From Neelides folsomi (Eukaryota > Arthropoda > Collembola > Neelipleona > Neelidae), in NCBI GenBank assembly GCA_034687125.1, contig JAQGBZ010000573.1, forward strand, positions 1 to 30,289: a stretch of DNA of 30,289 nucleotides. The letters run 5' to 3'. Position 1 is the first letter of the stretch. Each line of letters starts with the position of its first letter. The notes under the pieces are model-generated. The model saw only the letters and a list, made by a program, of their open reading frames with translations. It did no database searches and was not told the DNA's origin. Shown piece by piece: positions 4,416-28,923 of this stretch. The position numbers and the translations under genes were made by a program.

Positions 4416-4719
4416 TTCCTAATTTTTCTCTTTAACGCCCCCCTGAAGGAGAATAAACCGAACCAAACTTGTAAAAGATGAGCGGATGACATGCAGATAT
4501 GAATAGTTCATAAATCAATAAAAACTTCCAACGATTTCCCAACGAGAGCTGCGAAGCTGCGAAGGGTCTTCACCTCAATGAACGGAAAGTCTCCAATTGT
4601 TTGTCCAGGAACGGATTGGGAGTTTCCATTCCACGTGTGGAGGACGAGGAGCGGAGGCGCATGGGATTTGTCCCACTTTCAATGTCCCACTTTCATTCCG
4701 ACTCCCCCACTCCTCTGGC
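4416..4719. promoter_or_regulatory. shared divergent promoter region
   Basis: About 300 bp separate the starts of the C-type-lectin-like gene (minus) and the phosphatase gene (plus), so both probably fire from here. The half near the phosphatase is GC-rich. It holds a CACGTG E-box (4632-4637) and a direct repeat TGTCCCACTTTCA at 4669-4681 and 4683-4695, immediately before the phosphatase ATG. No TATA box is evident near that ATG. Open frames in this stretch lack an upstream ATG in the phosphatase frame, so I treat it as promoter plus 5' leader. Confidence 0.5.
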
Positions 4720-6822
4720 ATGCACGACCTCGACCGATACTTCGAAGTCGCCCTCGTCCTCACCAAGGACTGTGGAGAGGTAAGGACCCTTGGTTTAATT
4801 ACAGATCACTTTAAAAGTGTTTGTGAAGTCATTGACAACCTGTCATTCTCATCTTCCGGTCTTATTTAGTTGGTGAAGGAGGCGATCAACGCAGCCAAAG
4901 ATGTACAAACAAAGTCGAGTGATATTGACCTAGTTACAGAAACCGACCAAGAAGTTGAAAGACTTCTCATTTTTGGACTTCGGAGAGAATTCCCAACACA
5001 TAAGTAATTAATAGTCGTTTTTATTATATTTATGTTTTATTGTAATTTATGAATCTTTATACATGATTTTAAATTCAAATCTAATCATTTAAAATTAATT
5101 TTAATGCATGTTATTTTAACATTGTATTAAACTTTAATAATAAAGCATCAATACATACTACTTGATATTACCTATATCTTATTAAAAATTTAAAAAATAA
5201 TATAATGTTAATAAAAAGTAGAATTTATTTAGTTAATTTAACAATTAATAATTAAAAATAATTAATGATTTGTTTGAAAGGTTTATTGGAGAAGAGTCGA
5301 CAGCCAGCGGAGTAAAATGTGTGTTAACAGACGATCCGACTTGGATCATCGATCCCGTGGATGGGACGATGAATTTTGTTCATAATCTTCCGCTTGTTGC
5401 CATCAGCGTCGGATTATTCATCAATAAGAAGCCAGCCATTGGAATCATTTACAATCCGCTCCTCGATCAGCTTTTTACAGCCAAGGTTGGTCAGGGGGCT
5501 TTTCTTAATGGAGCTCCAATTCACGTCTCCGAACAAGCAGGTAAATAAATTATATATTTATCAATCATATTAATTTTAATTTAAATAATTAAATTATGCT
5601 AACATCATCAAAGAATTGATTATAGAGTATACAATGTATAAACACTAGTATATTAGGTATATCTTTTACCCGTGATTTTATATGTGATTAAGATTTATGT
5701 GATTTTTTAGAACTTGCTCAAGCTTTAATCTGCTCAGAAGTCGGAACAAATAAAGATCCAGAGCGGATTAAAGTCGTTCTCAGCAATTTGTCCAAACTCA
5801 TCGGAAAAGTTCATGGGTAAGACAAAATTTAATTTATTTGATATTTAGAATACTTATTACGTTATTACAATTAAGTAAAGATTTAGTTAATAAGTAAATA
5901 TGTATTTATTTAAATTTACAATAACAGTGAATTAACAGCATACAATTTAATATTAGAAAAATGAGTAACATTATTAAACCGCACGTTTGGGTCATTTTTA
6001 ATTAAAAAACTTGAGTAATGATGGATAGATTTTCGATACCTTAGAATCAGATACTTTGGTTCGGCGTGTGTTGCCATGTCGCTGTTGGCGATGGGAGCTG
6101 TCGACGTTTTCTTCCATAATGGTCTTCACTGTTGGGATATTGCAGCTGCTCAGGTTTTAGTCACAGAAGCCGGTGGAGTTTTGGTCGACTATGGAGGTCA
6201 AAATTTAATTAAGAATTTATGTGTATAATTAATAATTATAAAAATTTAATCTTTTAACTGTTTTGTTTATTTTAATAAGATTTTAGTGGTTTACTAATTT
6301 TATTGTTTTGTTAATTTGTGTTTAATTTGTTTTCCAATTAGTTAGTTTAGATGAATGTTTTCAGTTAATAAAAACCACTGATGAGAAATTAAATTTATGT
6401 TCAATGCTCAACGTGCGGTTTAAAATGTTGCTTAGACACAGAAGCTTAAATTGAATTTTTCTTATTTAATTTAAAATTAAAGAATTCGAGCGCTGGGTTC
6501 AGCCGCGCTAAACATGGCGTCAGTTGCGTCCGGCGGGACTGATGCTTATTTTGAATTTGGTATTCATGCTTGGGACATTGCTGCTGGGGAGTTGATCGTC
6601 ACAGAAGCTGGCGGATGTGTCATCGACACCGCCGGTATTTTTTAATTTTAATTTCCCATCAGTGGTTAATTGTTCATTAAACCCAATAAATATTTTCTTA
6701 TTCTTAAATAAAAAGGCGGGCCTTTGGACATCATGAACAGACGCGTGCTTTGTGCATCTTCGGAGCCACTGGCAAGAAAACTTGCAGACATTCTTGACCA
6801 ATACGAACTTGAACGAGATTGA
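4720..6822 (+). CDS. IMPA1: inositol monophosphatase with two alternative fifth exons
   Basis: This gene encodes a Mg-dependent phosphatase that releases free myo-inositol from inositol monophosphates (phosphoinositide recycling, cytosolic). Exons: 4720-4779, 4870-5003, 5281-5540, 5711-5816, then either 6045-6196 (5a) or 6483-6634 (5b), then 6716-6822. With one fifth exon the product is 272 residues, close to human IMPA1 (277). Metal ligands are visible: GEES with E69/E70, [12 protein letters not shown] with D89 and D92, and HxWD with D218 from either fifth exon. The C-terminal [12 protein letters not shown] block is also typical. All phases close. Including both or neither fifth exon shifts the frame, because 152 is not a multiple of three. 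The start ATG was chosen because [20 protein letters not shown] matches the N-terminal helix and no in-frame ATG lies upstream. Confidence 0.95.
5967..5987 (+). promoter_or_regulatory. intronic pairing arm A-left (upstream of exon 5a)
   Basis: AACATTATTAAACCGCACGTT (shown in full) is the reverse complement of 6410-6429, apart from one bulged A at 5973. The inner 14 nt (5974-5987) pair perfectly and contain CCGCACG, unusual in an otherwise AT-only intron. Paired, it would loop out exon 5a and bring exon 4 towards exon 5b. Confidence 0.75.
6045..6196 (+). CDS. IMPA1: phosphatase exon 5a (His variant of the substrate pocket)
   Basis: This 152-nt exon enters in phase 2 and leaves in phase 1, the same as exon 5b. 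It codes for [13 protein letters not shown] through [17 protein letters not shown] to TEAGG. The third metal ligand (WD, D218) and the TEAGG block are kept. The position equivalent to human Glu213 is His211, and the usual GGADAYYE-type segment is altered to GAVDVFFH. Its donor (GAG|GTCAAA) is weak and its acceptor is ACCTTAG. About half of its residues are identical to 5b. Intronic arms 5967-5987 and 6410-6429 bracket it. Confidence 0.9.
6373..6393 (+). promoter_or_regulatory. intronic pairing arm B-left (between exons 5a and 5b)
   Basis: AACCACTGATGAGAAATTAA (6373-6392) plus one more A pairs with 6647-6667 over 21 positions, with a single A-C mismatch (6384 against 6656). The helix would enclose exon 5b. 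The arm lies inside the loop of helix A. Confidence 0.75.
6410..6429 (+). promoter_or_regulatory. intronic pairing arm A-right (between exons 5a and 5b)
   Basis: AACGTGCGGTTTAAAATGTT is the partner of 5967-5987. It sits only 16 nt downstream of arm B-left in the 286-nt intron separating the two alternative exons, and lies inside the loop of helix B. Confidence 0.75.
6483..6634 (+). CDS. IMPA1: phosphatase exon 5b (canonical Glu variant)
   Basis: This exon has the same length and phases as exon 5a. It codes for [13 protein letters not shown] through [18 protein letters not shown] to TEAGG. It retains Glu211 (human Glu213, which contacts inositol hydroxyls), Asn197 and the metal ligand D218, so it is the conventional form. 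Both splice sites are weak: acceptor ATTAAAG and donor CCG|GTATTT. Intronic arms 6373-6393 and 6647-6667 bracket it. Confidence 0.9.
6647..6667 (+). promoter_or_regulatory. intronic pairing arm B-right (downstream of exon 5b)
   Basis: This is the partner of 6373-6393. It contains TTTCCCATCAGTGGTT and lies in the 81-nt intron between exon 5b and exon 6, starting 12 nt after the exon 5b donor. When paired it may also mask that donor. Confidence 0.75.
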
Positions 6823-7409
6823 AAAGAAATGAAGTTTTAGAAAGATCTCATCTTTTAAAACAATCAATGTAAATGTTACCTTACTTAAAATGTAAAGGAG
6901 AAAATGCCAAAGTCAGATATTTTAAAAGGACTATAAATTTCTTGAATCCTAATTAATTTAATGATATTAGCGAGTTGTACATACAAATACTAATAGCTTA
7001 TAATACATACAATTAATTATCACTTAATTGGTAGTTTAGTTATAAAAGATAGAAATAATATTAGTTCTTATTAAAATCTTTGTGTAAATCTTTAAGCATA
7101 ATTATTCTTTAAAACACTTGCTTAAATAGAATTTAAAATTTCTATATCACTTTCTTTTCATTCATTTACTAATATATCATTAAAAATTTGAAATGTCTCT
7201 ACATAGTAGAATTCACTTTTATTTTCTCATTGTTTTTTGTGTCTTGCAAATTACAAATATTTAACCGTTTAACCTAATTGTCAACTACCCAAGTGAAAAT
7301 ATTTGTATATGATATGGTACGTAAATGTATTGTATTGTCCAATATTTTCAAAGAGATATTTGCAAAGCAAACCATTTTATCAAAATAATGATAATGTTAA
7401 AAATACAAT

Positions 7410-9469: not shown

Positions 9470-11005
9470 TCATAACATCTCTGATGATATTCCATTAAGA
9501 ATTAATTCTTTTAATTTAAGATTCTCTTTATTTTCTACTTTATTTTTCTCTCTTTTAGATTTACTAAATGAGGAAAGATGGGCATTAAGGCAAAACATGG
9601 CCTTATGAAAATAAGAATCTTTGTTTGATAAAATTCGAATTTCCTTCATTTCCAACTTGAGCTCTTTCCGATTCTCAAACACATCTTTAAAATAATTTGC
9701 TCCGAGTCCTCTGCCCGTAACCCCGCGACTTAAACTCGAAATTCCAATTATTGAATCAACAAGATTCGCAGGATATAGATCACCCATTGGGAGCCTCACA
9801 CTTCCCCCGCCAATATCATTCAAATTCCACCGATCCCATTTATTCTCCCCGGCAATTATAATTGGGTTCAAAATTCCCAATTCTTCTGTAACAATTTTCT
9901 TTGCGGCTGCCATGACAAGTTTTTCATCAATGGTCTCAAAATTCCTACTCATGTAATGGGAAAAAAGAAGAATGAAATTACACCATTTATCCGAAAATAA
10001 ACGTCGCTTGAGTAAAAAAAGATTTCGCATAACTCGTCGGAGTTTCAACGGCGACTTTTCAAATTCATCAAATCGCGAAACAAAAACAACAGCGTGGGGA
10101 ATTGAACTTTTAAGTTCTTCATCTCGATCAAAGAATTTTTTCAGAGTTCCCATAACTCTCGCGTCCCATTCTCTATTCAATTTCCCACCAAATCCAGGAA
10201 CATCAATTATTCGAATTTCGGAATCATTTTCTGCTAACTTTCCGCGAAGTTCAAAAATTCCAGACGTTCCAGTTGCCTTATGATATTTTGGAAATAAAGA
10301 CTTCACCTGGAATTAACATTTATATTTTTATTATAATTAAATTAAGTGAAAAAACATTCCAATAAAATAAAATTAACAAAATGGGAAGGATTTAAAAAAA
10401 GAAACTTTAAAAGAAGATTTTTAAACTTAAACCATTTTCTATAGAATGATTTTGATAAATAAGAGCCAACAATAGAGTTTCTAACAATGAGGAATTTCCC
10501 TTGTAAAAAAAAGTCTAGAATGAATGAAGGAACAATGGAATTTGGTAATCAGAGCTTTAATTCTCTAATTCGTGCCATTTAACTCATCCAATGCTTAAAC
10601 TGAATCAAAGAATATTCCTCATCCTTCGAGATAAAGAAAAGTGTTTGTCCGAATGAAGAAATTAACTCTTGGGATTCAAGCAACGATGAAGCAAAATCGA
10701 GGTCATGAGAGAAAAAAAGCCCAAGAAGATGAGTGTCATTTTTTTTAAAGAAAAGTGTAAAAAATCCTTTCGTCCTTTCCCAAAAACTCTCACGGAATCG
10801 TGAAGGATTCATTGAACAACGTGTGAATTCGATTCGTGTACAAATAAACCTATTAATTCCTTGGTGTATTTGAACATACAAATCCTTCTCGCTGGTTCAA
10901 GATGGGAAAGGGCGAAAGAAAGAAAGAAAGAAGAAGGTTCAGGTTGGGAACTCACAGAGGAAGAAATCCCACCGTCAGGCTGACCCAAGAACAAAAGGAT
11001 GCCAT
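9470..11005 (-). CDS. IFI44-like protein: TLDc-like segment plus GTPase-like segment
   Basis: Model on the minus strand: 11005-10956, 10891-10584, a small linking exon 10514-10486 (tentative) and 10306-9470; phases close, giving 407 residues. Exon 1 starts at ATG 11005 (MASFCSWVSLTVGF) and uses a consensus donor (GTGAGT) into an 80-bp-class intron with a pyrimidine-rich acceptor. Exon 2 resembles the N-terminal half of a TLDc domain (FRESFWERTKGFFTLFF, then THLLGLFFSHD and QTLFFIS). The last exon resembles a GTPase core: a switch-I-like KATGTSG, G3 as RIIDVPGFGG, a strand AVVFVSRFDEF at the G4 position, then IIAGENKW and a lysine-rich tail. TLDc followed by a P-loop GTPase is the layout of IFI44/IFI44L antiviral-type proteins. 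A good Walker A motif is not visible and G4 reads SRFD, so nucleotide binding is doubtful. Confidence 0.6.
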
Positions 11006-21704: not shown

Positions 21705-24700
21705 ATGCGGATTGGAATATTCGTTCTCCTCCTTTTCGCCCTCGTCGGAAAACACGGAGCGGAAGCCACAGGTGATTCAGGTAAGATATTCGGAAAAAGT
21801 GCAAACCCCAATTTGTTATATCTTACATATGAGAATTGTTACGCGAGTGTTCTGTGTGGTGTTGATTGAAAAAGGAATCGAAGGTCGTGACGTGCCGTTT
21901 GTCCACGCCTACGATCCTCCACTTCTTCTTCCCTAATGCAATTGTGGAAATTTTTATTTTTCACAGTGAGATCCCTTGGGTGTTGTGCAAATTTTTTATC
22001 CTTTCTTTACCCAATCTTCTTATAATAATCCAACTTGTAAACTATATTATGTATTTGCAATGTTTGCTTTTAAAGAATCTTCATTTGGTTCCGCCTTTCC
22101 AATTCAAGTTTTGACCTCTTGGCATTTTACTTAATTTTATTAATTGAATACATAAATTTTAAAATGAATTGCAAAAGGACCAGAGATTATTTTTCAATTA
22201 TGATCAAATTTCAAATGGAATTGAATAGGCAAATGGAAATGAAAGTGAAAAATAAAAGTGATTTGTGATTTAAAGGATGCGTTGAGCCTCCGCCGGCCCC
22301 GCCAAACGGGCGGGTAAAAGAAAATTCAATAACGTGTGATAAAGGATACGAAATCTTCCCGCCGGGTTCGGAGCTTGAGTGCAAGAAAGGGAAATGGAAT
22401 TTACCTCATTGCGGTCAGTCGCCCTACTTTGCTATAATTACATTTTAATAACTAACAATAATAACAAGATGAGCTATGTTTGCCCAAAATCATGAAAAAT
22501 TTCTCTTTTAATTATTTGACTCTAATTGCATTTAAAATCATCTTCGTTAGTAACACAATCTTAAAGCCTTAATCTTTATAAAACTTATTTGTATATTACT
22601 AAATCATATTCCAGAATAACTTTATTACTTAATTATATTAATAATTTTAAGATATAAATGTAGTTTGTTTAACGTTTGAATTAACGGGATTTTGTTATTT
22701 CAGTTACAAACTTGGCTGGTCAACTTCCGACAAATCAATCGACAACTCATAAGAATTTCGAATCTGGACATGCCGTTGAAGGGAATCCCGACCTTTGCGC
22801 CCAAACGAACAAAGAGGCGAGCCCTTGGTGGAGAATTGACCTACTTCGAACAACCCAAGTCCTTGGGATTAAAATTCGTGGAGGTGAGTTTGGGTTGTCC
22901 AACATAAAGATTAATAGGAAAACCACACAAGAAGGAAAAGGGAAAAATGTGCCTGTGGAAATGAGGAGTTTCTTCACTTTCCTCAAGGGAGTTTAAAATT
23001 CTAATTTTAATTTCATTTTCCTTTCATAAAGGCGAAGCTCCACTTACTGATTTAGAAATACGCGTGGGGAATTCGACCGTTGTCAACAGAAACCCCCTTT
23101 GCACCTGGATACCTGATGCGGGTAAATTTGAATTCTTCATTACCGTTTGTTAGATAAATGTTTAAAATGCTTAAGAGTTAATTATGATTATTGATTAGGT
23201 CGAAAAATTAAAATAACTCATGTTCAGATTATTTTATAATTAAATAAATTGTAAATTGTAAATTCAATTTATTTTGGAATTAGGCTAATATTGCTAAATA
23301 TTTTTATACAATAGTTAGCCTTATGCTTCGCTAATTTATAATATGTCAATTTATCAATAGTGTGAGCTAATTGATTAAGTTGTAATTGTACATTTTTATT
23401 TCACCTTCGTTCCCAATTGGAATTTCGTAATTTCCAGCTTTGTGCATTAACTTTTCCTTCTCGTATTATGAGTAAGCCAAATAACTGTGAATAAAGTGTA
23501 AATAAAGAGCAAATGGAATGGTTGGGAGTGAGTAATGTTGTTGAATGTAAAAGTGGAATCGCCAGACAAATAGAACAATAAAAAGGAAAATAGATGGGGA
23601 GATAAAACTAATTGTAATAATGAACAGCTCTTGAGAGTGTTTGGTTCTCCTGAGCATGTCGAGTACATTGGATTATGTAGAATAAATTCCATGTTGTGTG
23701 GAAGTGAACTTTTTCTTTGTTTTGACTCTTTTGAGTCTGAGGGAGCTTTAAAGTGTAATGTAGCGTAGTGGGGAAAGAGGAATTAAAGGACCGTAAAGAA
23801 CCAGAGGGATACGGCCATTTATTCCCCTTATTATTAAAACCATTTCACTATTTATTACTCTTTTTTCAATTGTTGGAAAAGTTTTTTATTTGATGTTCTT
23901 TGGTTCCGGCCATCTTTCTTTTGTTTGCCTCTGTGTTGTGGGGATTTTCGAGGATGCCACAATTTCTCTTCTTTTTTCCGATTCTCCTCCCTTGCTATGC
24001 TACAAGATGAAAATGAGATCAATTGCGTTGAATTAAATACGCACTAAATCAATCATTTTTTATTTGTTTAATCTCCCTCATGTATCATGTAAAAACGGCC
24101 ATCTTCCTTCTTTTTCACGGAAGTTAATTGGGCGAAAGTTAGTTGATATAAAATTATTAGGGGAAATTGAAATTGAAAACTTTGACTTCTGTATACAAAC
24201 ACATACTTCTGTACATATTAGAGTAGTTCTATATATTACCTATATTAAATATGCATATAATACAATACAATATTAATTGTATGTGATAGAAATGAAGTAG
24301 GTATGAATATTATTGTAATTTATGAAATCTGCTATTTAAAGAATTTTGAAAATGGCGGGAAATTTTTAAATATTTTTTTCTTAGGTTCTGGAAGTGTCAT
24401 GTCTTGTGCTCGACCGCTGGTCGGTCGTTATGTCAGCGTGGGCTCAACATCAGAAACCCAACTTGTTCTGTGTAATGTGGAAGTGTACGGAAATGAAGGA
24501 ATTAGCCGAAGATCTTGCGAACCCGAACTTAAGGCTGGAACTGACCTCGCATTCTTCAACGGCACTTGCTTTGAATTTTCCCTCGGGGAAGGAAAAACGT
24601 TCAATTTGGCCCGGGCCCAGTGTACGTCAAGAGGCGGGGATTTGATCTCTGGAGATTCGTTGAAAACTCCCGCGTTGTCCCTTGTACAAGGGAGGCTAGA

Positions 24701-27700
24701 AACTGCTAAGGCGAGACTTAAACGCCCCTTAGTTTGGATTGGGATCGAACGCGATCCAGTTTTTACCAGTCGAACTTGGCGATATTTGAATGGGGACGTG
24801 ATCAAAAAACCCAATTGGGGCAAAGATCAACCCAACAATTACAACGGGGAACAAAATTGTGCCGTTTTGGATGGAAATCGTGATTGGGCTTGGAACGACG
24901 TTGGCTGTCAGCTCGATTACTTTTATTGGATCTGTGAATTTGGTAAGAAAGTTTTTTTTTAATCAAAATATTCAACATTTACAGTTTTACCTGTCAAAAT
25001 TCAAATTTATTAATTAATGGATTAAGACTTCAATCACAGGATTTAGCAAAAAAGTAAAATTTTCCGCTCTCGTTCACTTTTCTTTTTTACTCAAATTTAA
25101 ATTTCGAGGATCATCGACACCAAACCCATTTAACATAAATTAAGCAGAATCAAAAATCATGCAGAGCATAAAAGTGTTTAAAGCTTTCATAAGAAACTCA
25201 AAGTCTATGGAGATGTTGAAGTGAGAAGAGGATTAGGATTTAAATGAGTGAACTCAATTGCTTATCGTTAGATGAATCGCGTCGTTCGCTCTCTCTCTCA
25301 ATTTCATATCTGTTTCACAGGATGATGTTGAGAAAAGATTTGTGCACATCATCCGCATCAATTTACCTTTTCCTTCTTGGAATCTTAACACCTTTTTATC
25401 TTCTCATTTTGGGATCATAAACAAGAAGATGATTTACACGTTTTAAGCTTTAATACATTTACATTTAATAAAATCTTATTGTATGGTATATATGCCATTT
25501 TCTATATATAAAAATATATGGGAAATTTTGAAATAAACTCCAATTAAATTATTTAAAATTATTAAAGATATTATAAATTTTAAAATATTGCAATTTTAGA
25601 TTTCCGAAAGCAACTTTCAAGTTTATGCATCTCAGGATTTATTATATAAAGATTATATTAATTTGAATTAAGTAAATTAAGTAATTGCGGGTATTACAAT
25701 ACAATTTTGAATTTAATCCTTATAGGTCCTCAAAGTTGTGGAAGCCCCGGGAAGCCAGAAGGAATTGAATTTAAGAGTGAAGTCCTTGAGAAAAACCCCC
25801 TTGGTTCCGTGGTGGAGTTCGGTTGTCGTGAGGGGCATTTCCTCACGGGAGATTCTTCAATTACTTGTCTCAAAGGACGATGGAATTCAACAACGCCGCC
25901 GTCATGCACCTGTAACTCAACCACACAATTTAATTCTAACAAACATACTTTATTCTTGCTTTTACTGTCTGTCATTTTTAAGATAAACAAAATATAACTG
26001 AATAAATATTTATACAGTATAATACTTTTATGTATACTTTTAATTTTAGATTATATTCTTTTATTGATCTTTCCCGTAACAACTTTGTCTAATGGCATTT
26101 ATCATGAATAGAATGATAATGTTGACTTATCAAATTATGTTCCTGGATTTGTTTAGATGTTGATTGCGGACAAACCGAGTCGACAATTAAAAACGGCGCT
26201 GTGCAAAAGTCAAATAGAACAGATTTTGGAGCCAAAATCATTTTCAATTGCAATGCTGATTATGAGCTCGTAGGAGCGAAGCAAATTTCATGCGGAAAAG
26301 ATGGAGCTTGGCCAGAATTTCCTCAATGTTTATGTAAGTAATTACTGAACCAAACAGTAAATTTTAAATGATAATTGCAAATAATTTGTTCTATGTATTA
26401 AACATTTCTTTTTAATAAAATAATAACCATTACAATTGTATCCTCAATAATGCAAAATATAAATTTTAGATTCCAAATGTGAAAACCCCCCTGAGCTTCT
26501 CAACGGCACTTCCGAACTCTCCGGAATCAAACGCGGGTCAAAGATCAAATACAAATGCCACCCAGGTCATCTCCTCATCGGGAGCGGAGAACTTGTTTGC
26601 GAGATGGGCGGAAAATGGTCGGCACCGTTTCCGACATGTAAATACATCGACTGCGGTTCGGTTCCTGCAATTGAAAACGCCGAGTTTCGTTATGTGAACG
26701 GAACAATGCTGGGAAGCGTAGCAGAAGTCGTTTGCAAAAGTGATTACATGGTGGAAGGAATGCCAATTAAAACTTGCTTGCCTGATGGAACCTGGGGAGG
26801 AGACAAACACATGTCTTGCCAATGTAATTCAATATTTAATCAAATGAAAATGAAATTAATACTTTTATGTTAATGCTAAATTCCAAATTCACAATGAGTT
26901 GTTTTGTATTAATTACAATTGTGGATTTAATAGACATTGACTGCGGAGAACCAGAAGTTCCTCCAGGTGGAATTGTGACGGGTTATGATTACACAATCGG
27001 GTCCATAATTGAATATCATTGTGAAGATGGTCACGTCCTTTTGGGAGCTCAACACACAAGAACTTGTAAGTCGAATGGTGAATGGAGCGGAAATGTCCCA
27101 ACGTGCGAATGTAAGTAAAACATATGCCATTATTTAAATCAAATCACACTTTTAAAGTTAATCATTATTTAATAATCATTAAAGGACAATGAATGACGCT
27201 TATCTAATATTTTTATGATCCATTATTATTATTAAAATTTATTAAAAAAATATAAACCAACTTTAAATATTATTAAATATTAGATGTTGACTGTGGCCGA
27301 TCCCCTCCAATTCAATATGGAACCATTAAATATGTGAATGCGACTTATTATGGAAGTCAAGCCATTTATGCATGTGCTTTGAATTATAAATTGAAGTCCA
27401 GCGGAGTTCGTCAATGTTTGGCAAACGCCTCTTGGTCAGGAACAGTTCCTAGATGTGAAGGTAAAATCAATTAATTAAAATCAATTTCAATTTCATTCAA
27501 AAAGTAAATATGAATAATTAAATAAATAATTGAAATAGAAACTCGATGTGCGAGCCCCGTCATTCCCCTTAACGCCCTTATCACCGTCACCAACAATGAT
27601 AGATCTGGGCTCAAATTACAAACTTGGGCCAATGACTTTAACCAAACATTTAAAGTCGGCTCAATTGTGAAATTCAGGTAAAAAATATTTCAAATTGACA

Positions 27701-28923
27701 TACAGACATGTATAACTGATTTTAAATATTATTTAATAATGATCTTCCATATTAATTGATTAATTGTTTGTAAAGATGCGAAAGAGGTTACGTTCTTCTT
27801 GGGCCTGGTTCCATGAACTGCATTTCTGGAGGTCTTTGGGACCAAGTGAGTCCGAGTTGTTCTTATGTGGACTGTGGACTTCCGTTGCCGATTCCTCACG
27901 CTACTATCAATCTCATCAACAATGCCACTCATTTGGGATCTGCAGTGCTTTATGAAGTGAGGCAAAATTAGTCTAATTTTTAAGCTAATATCAAATAACA
28001 ACTAACAATTTATGTACGCGTTTCAGTGTGTTCCTGGCTATACTTTGAGTGGTGACGGCGGACGGCACATTTGCTCGGAAGCTGGGAAATGGAAAGGATC
28101 TCAAATTACATGTAAAGGTCAGTTGAGTCAAAACAGCACCATAATTATTAAATGTATACCTATATAAAATAAAGAAATTTTATTTAATCGATTGTGAATT
28201 TCCAGAGGTGAGATGTCCAGAAATTGGAGAAGCAAGTTCTACAGCTGTTGGATCTTACGCTCACTATAAGTGCGGCAAAGGACAAATTCTTATTGGTTAT
28301 GAAAAGCGGCAATGTCTTGAAAGTGGATCTTGGGAAGGAACTGAACCGTTTTGTGAATGTACGTTAATATTACTCATTGTTATTATCAATTATAGCTCAA
28401 ATTAATTGAATTTATTTTATAATAATTAACCAAATATTAATTTTTTCAATTTATAGGGACTGAATGCGGAGAACCGTCGGAGCTTCCAAACAGTCGCCAA
28501 TTCAGCCTCAACAAAAGCGCCATTTACGGAGCCATCGTTGAAGTTCATTGTATGCACGGTTTTGTTCTCCAAGGTCCAGCCACTATAAAGTGCGACGGGG
28601 AGGTTTGGAGTCAAAGTCCTTCATGTGTGAAGGCAGACGAAATCCCCGACCCTTCGAAACTCGGCGGGTCTTTGCCAGTTCTCCTTGGCCTCTCTCTCGG
28701 CCTCGTTCTCGTCCTAGCCCTTGTTTTGTTCCTTTTATGGAAAAACCGGAGGAAAAGACCGGCAAGGACAATCACCGATCCCCCAGTTGGCCCAAAAGAC
28801 AACCAAATGGTTTCCTATGGATATTATGACAATCCAACTGTGGATCCCATTTATGAAAATTTGGACGATTATGGATCCACGGCGGCGTCTGTTGTGACCA
28901 TTAATGGTGTAGCTGTGGGTTAA
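21705..28923 (+). CDS. fw: Furrowed-type selectin-like receptor (FTP + C-type lectin + 11 sushi domains)
   Basis: Exons: 21705-21780, 22276-22413, 22704-22883, 23032-23121, 24385-24942, 25726-25911, 26157-26333, 26470-26823, 26934-27110, 27284-27460, 27539-27677, 27776-27956, 28027-28117, 28206-28358, 28457-28923. All phases close at 1047 residues. Signal peptide 1-22 (MRIGIFVLLLFALVG...). Sushi 1 is at about 27-71. An F-type-lectin-like (FTP) domain at about 72-203 has PWWRIDL, LEIRVGNS and LCNVEVYG. A C-type lectin at about 207-347 has WIGIERD, QPN, NGEQNC and WND. Ten sushi domains follow to about 949, a transmembrane helix at about 965-987, a basic stop-transfer KNRRKRP, then a 55-residue tail with YYDNP and YENL. 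This is the Drosophila Furrowed architecture. That protein is a cell-surface adhesion molecule linked to eye and bristle development and to Frizzled stabilisation in planar polarity. Most exon junctions are phase 1, with one sushi domain per exon. Confidence 0.93.
23122..24384 (+). other. largest-class intron of the receptor gene, inside the FTP domain
   Basis: This 1.26-kb intron separates the last strands of the FTP domain from its preceding exon (GCGG|GTAAAT ... TTCTTAG|GT). I see no coding frame or RNA gene inside. The short minus-strand frames at 23447-23692 have no supporting signal. Confidence 0.6.
24943..25725 (+). other. intron between the C-type lectin exon and the first post-lectin sushi exon
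   Basis: This is a 783-nt intron (TTTG|GTAAGA ... CCTTATAG|GT). It is AT-rich with a short CT run (about 25290-25300). Nothing else recognisable. Confidence 0.6.

What the first reader, a model, noticed from the sequence alone, without database searches (positions are those of the whole stretch)
5967..6667. Two interleaved intronic RNA helices, one looping out each alternative exon
Arm 5967-5987 is complementary to 6410-6429 (20 bp, one bulged A; 14 bp perfect with a GC-rich core) and encloses exon 5a. Arm 6373-6393 is complementary to 6647-6667 (20 of 21 positions pair) and encloses exon 5b. The order A-left, B-left, A-right, B-right means each helix puts one arm of the other inside its loop, so both together would need a pseudoknot. 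Formation of A would favour 4-5b joining, and B would favour 5a-6 joining. Competing intronic base pairing is an established mechanism for mutually exclusive exons in Dscam and other insect genes. The interleaved geometry here gives a simple explanation for why exactly one exon is chosen. A 14-bp perfect GC-containing match by chance between two introns of this size is very unlikely.
Basis: partly seen in the sequence, partly recalled or inferred. Interest (0 to 1): 0.95.

Follow-up and report, generated by a model that had tools for sequence, protein, structure and literature searches.

The report
RNA switch choosing enzyme's specificity exon
In a springtail-like animal, two strong RNA pairings in the introns of an inositol-phosphatase gene each loop out one of two alternative exons, so the RNA itself probably helps decide which of two versions of the enzyme's substrate pocket is made.

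Summary
The gene is an IMPA1-type inositol monophosphatase, closest to Collembola. It has two homologous 152-nt exons, 5a (6045-6196; acceptor corrected here) and 5b (6483-6634); only one at a time keeps the frame. Helix A is longer than reported (25 bp, one bulge); B is 20 of 21. They are the two strongest uninterrupted helices in 899 nt. Of 15 intron pairs, only the two flanking 5a and 5b stand out (-20.1, -15.9 against at best -8.9 kcal/mol). Each arm's only match in the 75-Mb assembly is its partner. The interleaved layout matches the published bidirectional-pairing model (srp exon 4). Cautions: the helices share no bases, so both forming together is not excluded; the nested fold contains A, not B; conservation of the arms was not testable. 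Exon swapping is supported by Allacma, whose protein model carries both exons in the same order. New here: the swap replaces Glu (human Glu213, inositol-contacting) by His in six of six 5a-type sequences, and decapod isoforms swap the same segment (Glu/His/Thr/Ser).

The parts
4720..6822 (+). Coding part of the inositol monophosphatase gene (IMPA1 type): exons 4720-4779, 4870-5003, 5281-5540, 5711-5816, 5a or 5b, 6716-6822
   Evidence: Full-length ORF of 272 aa with either 5a or 5b; aligned to bovine/human IMPase; PF00459 above cut-off
6045..6196 (+). Alternative exon 5a, 152 nt (His at the human Glu213 position); acceptor TTAG, donor GAG|GTCAAA
   Evidence: homologous segment in Allacma P0001, P0002, P0004, P0005, P0006
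6483..6634 (+). Alternative exon 5b, 152 nt (Glu at the human Glu213 position); donor CCG|GTATTT
   Evidence: homologous segment in Allacma P0001 and in P0003
5962..5987 (+). Helix A, left arm (intron 4), bulged A5973; ends 57 nt before exon 5a
   Evidence: 14-mer core unique in the assembly apart from its partner
6410..6434 (+). Helix A, right arm (middle intron); ends 48 nt before exon 5b. Pairing loops out exon 5a (422-nt loop)
6373..6393 (+). Helix B, left arm (middle intron)
6647..6667 (+). Helix B, right arm (last intron, from +13 of the 81-nt intron; ends 48 nt before exon 6). Pairing loops out exon 5b (253-nt loop)
6241..6293 (+). Local competitor for B's left arm: pairs with 6371-6397 (-16.3 kcal/mol as a duplex, with a large internal gap)
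   Evidence: Present in the MFE fold; duplex. Not tested against chance

Best explanation
A pair of mutually exclusive exons in an IMPA1-type inositol monophosphatase gene, chosen with the help of two long-range intronic RNA helices of the bidirectional-pairing kind. Helix A can form first during transcription; it loops out 5a and brings the exon 4 donor near the 5b acceptor, giving 4-5b-6, the canonical enzyme. Helix B, once its left arm is freed from a local hairpin, loops out 5b, covers the short 5b-6 intron from +13, and brings the 5a donor near exon 6, giving 4-5a-6. Transcripts with both or neither exon are frameshifted and would probably be degraded. The choice exchanges the substrate-pocket segment (Glu in 5b, His in 5a at the human Glu213 position) and so probably changes which sugar phosphates are accepted. 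Shown: exons, frame logic, helices, their rarity, the homologous exon pair in Allacma. Inferred: that the helices form in cells and direct splicing, the default state, the decay of wrong products, the substrate change.
For: Two strongest uninterrupted helices of the region; only 2 of 15 intron pairs carry strong helices, exactly the two that flank 5a and 5b; shuffles 0 of 1500 and 1 of 1500; arms single-copy in the assembly apart from their partners; equal-length 152-nt homologous exons that shift the frame if both or neither are used; both exon types in one Allacma protein model in the same order; same architecture and size as srp exon 4 (about 21 bp, 450-nt spread; PMC6027157 table; PMC6071210).
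Against: No conservation or covariation test of the arms was possible; no RNA data for this species. The helices do not share bases and a pseudoknot holding both is not excluded. The nested MFE has A but not B. In unmatched genomic background B alone is reached in 34 of 1840 placements and both in 2 of 1840.
Confidence: 0.68

Rival explanations
1. The exons are mutually exclusive, but exclusivity comes from decay of frameshifted double or zero products plus weak splice sites and trans-acting factors; the helices form but only modulate the ratio, or do nothing.
For: Both-in and both-out products shift the frame and meet an early stop. The 5a donor GTCAAA and 5b donor GTATTT depart from the common GTAAG/GTAAAT of the other exons. 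Helices share no bases.
Against: Does not explain why the only two strong inter-intronic helices of the gene flank exactly 5a and 5b.
Confidence: 0.24
2. Helix A alone matters: it makes 5b the default by looping out 5a, and B is a chance or minor pairing; a regulator opens A to allow 5a.
For: A is in the MFE and in folds of growing transcripts (24-25 of 25 pairs in 8 of 8 prefixes), B is in none. B is less rare in the genomic background (34 of 1840).
Against: B is the second strongest uninterrupted helix in the region, reached by 1 of 1500 shuffles, unique in the assembly apart from its partner, and encloses exactly the other exon.
Confidence: 0.25
3. Both helices are chance or repeat-derived inverted repeats without a function.
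For: Strong inverted repeats occur elsewhere in this genome (14 and 34 of 1840 placements).
Against: Introns and arms are single-copy; at <28% GC, counts are 0 (A), 3 (B), 0 (both) of 281, and at <25% 0, 1, 0 of 97.
Confidence: 0.06
4. Exon 5a is a decaying or unused copy and the gene makes only the 5b enzyme.
For: 5a is the faster-changing copy in the window (long end branch 0.86); no RNA data for this species.
Against: Open frame of exactly 152 nt, Trp-Asp motif kept, splice sites present; 5a-type full-length proteins in Orchesella, Folsomia and unnamed jgi contigs.
Confidence: 0.05

Closest known systems
Bidirectional RNA-pairing control of srp exon 4 (Drosophila; Yue et al., not seen itself, only as described in PMC6071210, PMC6027157 and PMC8042237)
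   Same: Two alternative exons, two pairs of complementary intronic elements each enclosing one exon, interleaved so that both together make a pseudoknot, similar arm length and spread (about 21 bp, 450 nt in the PMC6027157 table)
   Different: Other gene and a non-insect hexapod; conservation and mutational evidence exist there (as described) but not here; here a local hairpin may hold B's left arm
Docking site-selector pairing of Dscam exon 6 and related clusters
   Same: Long-range intronic pairing loops out alternative exons
   Different: There one docking site is shared by competing selectors; here no arm is shared by two long-range partners
IMPase/FBPase specificity residue 213 (PMC2080633 section 9)
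   Same: Glu or Gln goes with inositol-1-phosphate specificity; Asp, His, Ser or Thr with dual or fructose-bisphosphate enzymes; 5b has Glu, 5a His
   Different: There the residue differs between separate genes; here one gene offers both by splicing. The loop shortening that the paper also requires for fructose-bisphosphate was not checked here

Membership tests
Bidirectional RNA-pairing mutually exclusive exons (srp type) | Two tandem homologous exons of which exactly one keeps the frame | tested here: met
   152 and 152 nt, 26 of 52 residues identical; both or neither shift the frame
Bidirectional RNA-pairing mutually exclusive exons (srp type) | Two pairs of complementary intronic elements, each enclosing one exon, in interleaved order | tested here: met
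Bidirectional RNA-pairing mutually exclusive exons (srp type) | The two pairings cannot form at once | tested here: inconclusive
   No shared bases; rough pseudoknot estimate lies between the A and B states
Bidirectional RNA-pairing mutually exclusive exons (srp type) | Pairings conserved or co-varying between species | not testable with these tools
   No intron sequence of a relative was held; assembly has no relatives; a scan of viral contigs found none
Bidirectional RNA-pairing mutually exclusive exons (srp type) | Transcripts carry one exon, and arm mutations change the choice | not testable with these tools
   Only indirect: uninterrupted 5a-type (P0002) and 5b-type (P0003) proteins from contigs of 1259 and 1398 bases in relatives
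Dscam-type docking site-selector cluster | One docking site complementary to several competing selectors | tested here: not met
   No second long-range partner of comparable strength for either helix in the list of uninterrupted helices
Inositol monophosphatase (PF00459, IMPA1 type) | Family match and metal-binding acids kept in both isoforms | tested here: met
   PF00459 above cut-off; alignments keep the GEES, DP.DGT and WD motifs with either exon (residue roles from passages of PMC4954947)

The most novel reading that the evidence does not exclude
A pseudoknotted intronic RNA switch selects between two substrate pockets of one metabolic enzyme: exon 5b gives an inositol-specific phosphatase (Glu213), exon 5a a relaxed or different sugar phosphatase (His213). 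The swap is old or recurrent: it is seen in Collembola, at the same segment in decapod crustaceans (Glu/His/Thr/Ser at the same residue), and is hinted at in annelids, so this exon of IMPase would be a repeated site of splice-encoded specificity change in animals.
Probability: 0.35. Interest if true: 0.8.

Novelty: new member of a known kind. Interest (0 to 1): 0.62.

Why it matters
The cases of bidirectional pairing named in the papers seen here are few (srp, RIC-3, MRP1, some Dscam clusters) and all in insects. A compact case (899 nt, two exons, two helices) outside insects in the strict sense would make the question of how helices that share no bases enforce one choice directly testable in a minigene. 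The enzyme side is equally testable: two isoforms of one phosphatase differ only in a 50-residue segment that carries the residue tied to inositol specificity.

Tried and rejected
Mobile-element origin of the arms: not supported, introns 4 and middle and the arms are single-copy in the assembly (the last intron was not searched whole). A known structured RNA: the Rfam search of 4600-7000 gave one sub-threshold hit (19.1 bits, cut-off 70, E 0.17) across the end of the last intron and exon 6. Docking site-selector layout: no shared arm. Arm duplication as in the PMC6071210 model: the five comparisons made gave only short AT-rich similarity. 5a as stand-in for a missing FBPase: rejected, a PF00316 gene lies on contig C201.

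Age of the 5a/5b duplication: undecided. With 42 rows and all 50 columns, six Collembola-like 5a exons and eight decapod His exons fall on one side of a branch (98/90). With column 213 removed and three rows dropped (Armadillidium, Ctenocephalides, jgi P0021) this is lost; the six 5a rows stay together (94/91, not starred) but next to human IMPA1, which is not credible as history. AU tests reject neither 'all 14 His exons one clade' (p 0.528) nor 'all nine Collembola exons one clade' (p 0.346).

A third protein search on the 5a segment gave 8 proteins and no new named collembolan. Folsomia and Orchesella 5b-type proteins were not among the 140 listed (best 120 of each); the database is clustered at 90%, so this is not evidence of absence. 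One viral-contig scan found no relative. In some searches the 5a isoform was used with an acceptor 6 nt too far downstream, and intron 4 was taken 6 nt too long; corrected.

Full report
What is in the window. Bases 4720-6822 (+) encode an IMPA1-type inositol monophosphatase with seven coding exons, of which 5a and 5b are homologous alternatives. The protein aligns with bovine and human IMPase from residue 9 to its end. Its best database relatives are collembolan or unnamed: Allacma fusca (66% over 87% of the query), then jgi proteins, Orchesella and Folsomia. The organism is therefore probably a collembolan; its name is not known to me. The assembly has 75.1 Mb in 840 contigs. A protein search of it with isoform 5b returned seven matches, all exons of this gene; a PF00459 profile search also found more distant members on contigs C145, C481 and C131.

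Exon structure, corrected. Exon 5a starts at 6045, after TTAG, rather than at 6051. This gives 152 nt, the same as 5b, and restores the Ile-Arg start seen in 5b. 5a and 5b share 87 of 152 bases and 26 of 52 residues. 4-5a-6 and 4-5b-6 each give 272 residues; both or neither gives an early stop.

The helices. A extends to 25 bp (5962-5987 x 6410-6434, bulged A5973); B has 20 pairs and one A.C mismatch. They are ranks 1 and 2 among uninterrupted helices of 9 bp or more in 5817-6715. Among all 15 pairs of the gene's six introns the best uninterrupted helix is -20.1 for intron 4 x middle intron and -15.9 for middle x last intron; the other 13 pairs lie between -4.4 and -8.9. Dinucleotide shuffles reached A in 0 of 1500 and B in 1 of 1500. 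In 1840 overlapping placements of the same geometry in 200 kb of this genome 14 reached A, 34 reached B and 2 reached both, the 2 in one GC-rich stretch; below 28% GC the counts are 0, 3 and 0 of 281, below 30% 4, 5 and 0 of 517. Whole-assembly searches found the A 14-mer once on each strand, at its two arms (reversed control: 1 and 0), and the B 21-mer (one ambiguous base, up to 2 mismatches) likewise. With about one occurrence per strand in 75.1 Mb, a chance copy inside a given 286-nt intron has a probability near 4 in a million (my arithmetic).

How it would work. A's arms end 57 nt before 5a and 48 nt before 5b; pairing brings the exon 4 donor and the 5b acceptor together. B's right arm starts at +13 of the 81-nt intron after 5b and ends 48 nt before exon 6; pairing brings the 5a donor and the exon 6 acceptor together. 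Folds of growing transcripts hold 24-25 of 25 A pairs in 8 of 8 prefixes from 6434 on, before B's right arm exists, and no B pairs. In the MFE B's left arm pairs with 6245-6291 instead; as isolated duplexes this is -16.3 against -27.4 for B (loop costs not included). So the predicted default is 4-5b, and use of 5a would need A opened or B's left arm freed. This step is inference.

Where the reading is weaker than it looked. A nested folding program cannot hold both helices, so the absence of B says little by itself. But they share no bases: A plus B as a pseudoknot is estimated at -214 to -219.5, against -222.5 with A and -209.3 with B (assumed penalty 7 to 12). Exclusivity is thus not enforced by base competition. 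The published description of srp says the same: the pairings are not mutually exclusive, but joint formation is impeded by a pseudoknot (PMC6071210 section 16, read in full).

Independent support for the exon pair. Allacma P0001 (337 aa) contains a 5a-type and then a 5b-type segment, in the same order as here, with a short stretch between them, evidently a gene model that ran through both. P0002 and P0003 are uninterrupted 5a-type and 5b-type proteins from jgi contigs of 1259 and 1398 bases, probably transcripts (inference). Folsomia 'isoform X2' and Orchesella are 5a-type; their 5b forms were not among the 140 proteins listed.

What the swap changes. The residue aligned with human Glu213 is Glu in 5b and His in 5a. 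Over the 140 proteins it is Glu 120, His 13, Thr 4, Ser 1, Gln 1, Asp 1, each protein counted once. Four proteins carry two copies of the segment (P0001, P0007, P0039 by motif; P0126 by eye); P0007 (Acipenser, marked as unverified) repeats other parts as well. All six 5a-type sequences (window, first Allacma copy, P0002, P0004, P0005, P0006; P0002 and P0005 unnamed) have His, and they group together even without that column (94/91). PMC2080633 section 9 (read in full) states that Glu213 contacts the inositol hydroxyls and that Asp, His, Ser or Thr there is found in enzymes that take both substrates or fructose-1,6-bisphosphate, with a shorter loop elsewhere as the main condition for the latter. 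I did not check that loop, so relaxed or altered specificity is as far as this goes.

Decapods. In 7 of 7 same-species isoform pairs that I chose (Scylla, Penaeus japonicus, Homarus twice, Panulirus twice, Portunus; others were not compared) the proteins have equal length and differ only within residues 190-239. One partner has Glu at the 213 position, the other His, Thr or Ser. Paralvinella P0039 and Lamellibrachia P0126 carry Thr and Glu copies in tandem. Whether this is one old duplication or several is not resolved.

Literature. No paper found in the held library reports mutually exclusive exons in inositol monophosphatase: searches returned 1, 8, 2 and 5 papers, and (Collembola with mutually exclusive exons) 2. 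I read passages of two of these (PMC4466255, 12 of 17 places, and PMC1950890), neither of which reports it there; the rest were judged from the listing. A tandem-exon paper, PMC9013439, has no mention of inositol or IMPA. The library lacks most subscription papers. Yue et al. on srp was not seen itself; PMC6071210 sections 3 and 16 were read in full, PMC6027157, PMC8042237 and PMC11802352 as passages.

Verdict. Observation confirmed and extended; mechanism probable by architecture and precedent, untested by comparison or experiment. A new member of a known kind of splicing control, with an unusually clear biochemical consequence.

Noticed in passing
2171-2190 and 2229-2248: Nearly perfect 20-nt inverted repeat (one side ACAGTGTGGACCAGAGTTAA) with a short centre; looks like a small mobile-element remnant with terminal inverted repeats.
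   Followed up: no
about 1234-1265 and 1485-1515: Inverted repeat (CAGGGC..GTCGGTTATCATC / GATGATAACCGAC..GCCCTG) bounding about 280 bases; looks like another short element.
   Followed up: no
9470-10312 (-): 280-aa open frame with a DVPGFGG stretch that looks GTPase-like (resemblance recalled, not searched).
   Followed up: no
24261-28923 (+): Open frames with C-type-lectin-like and sushi-like segments and a final transmembrane stretch, reminiscent of the insect furrowed gene (recalled, not searched).
   Followed up: no
G000 contig C145:862-1608 (L034): A more distant PF00459 match near a contig end with several in-frame stops in the matched stretch; not an IMPA1 copy by the protein search.
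   Followed up: no
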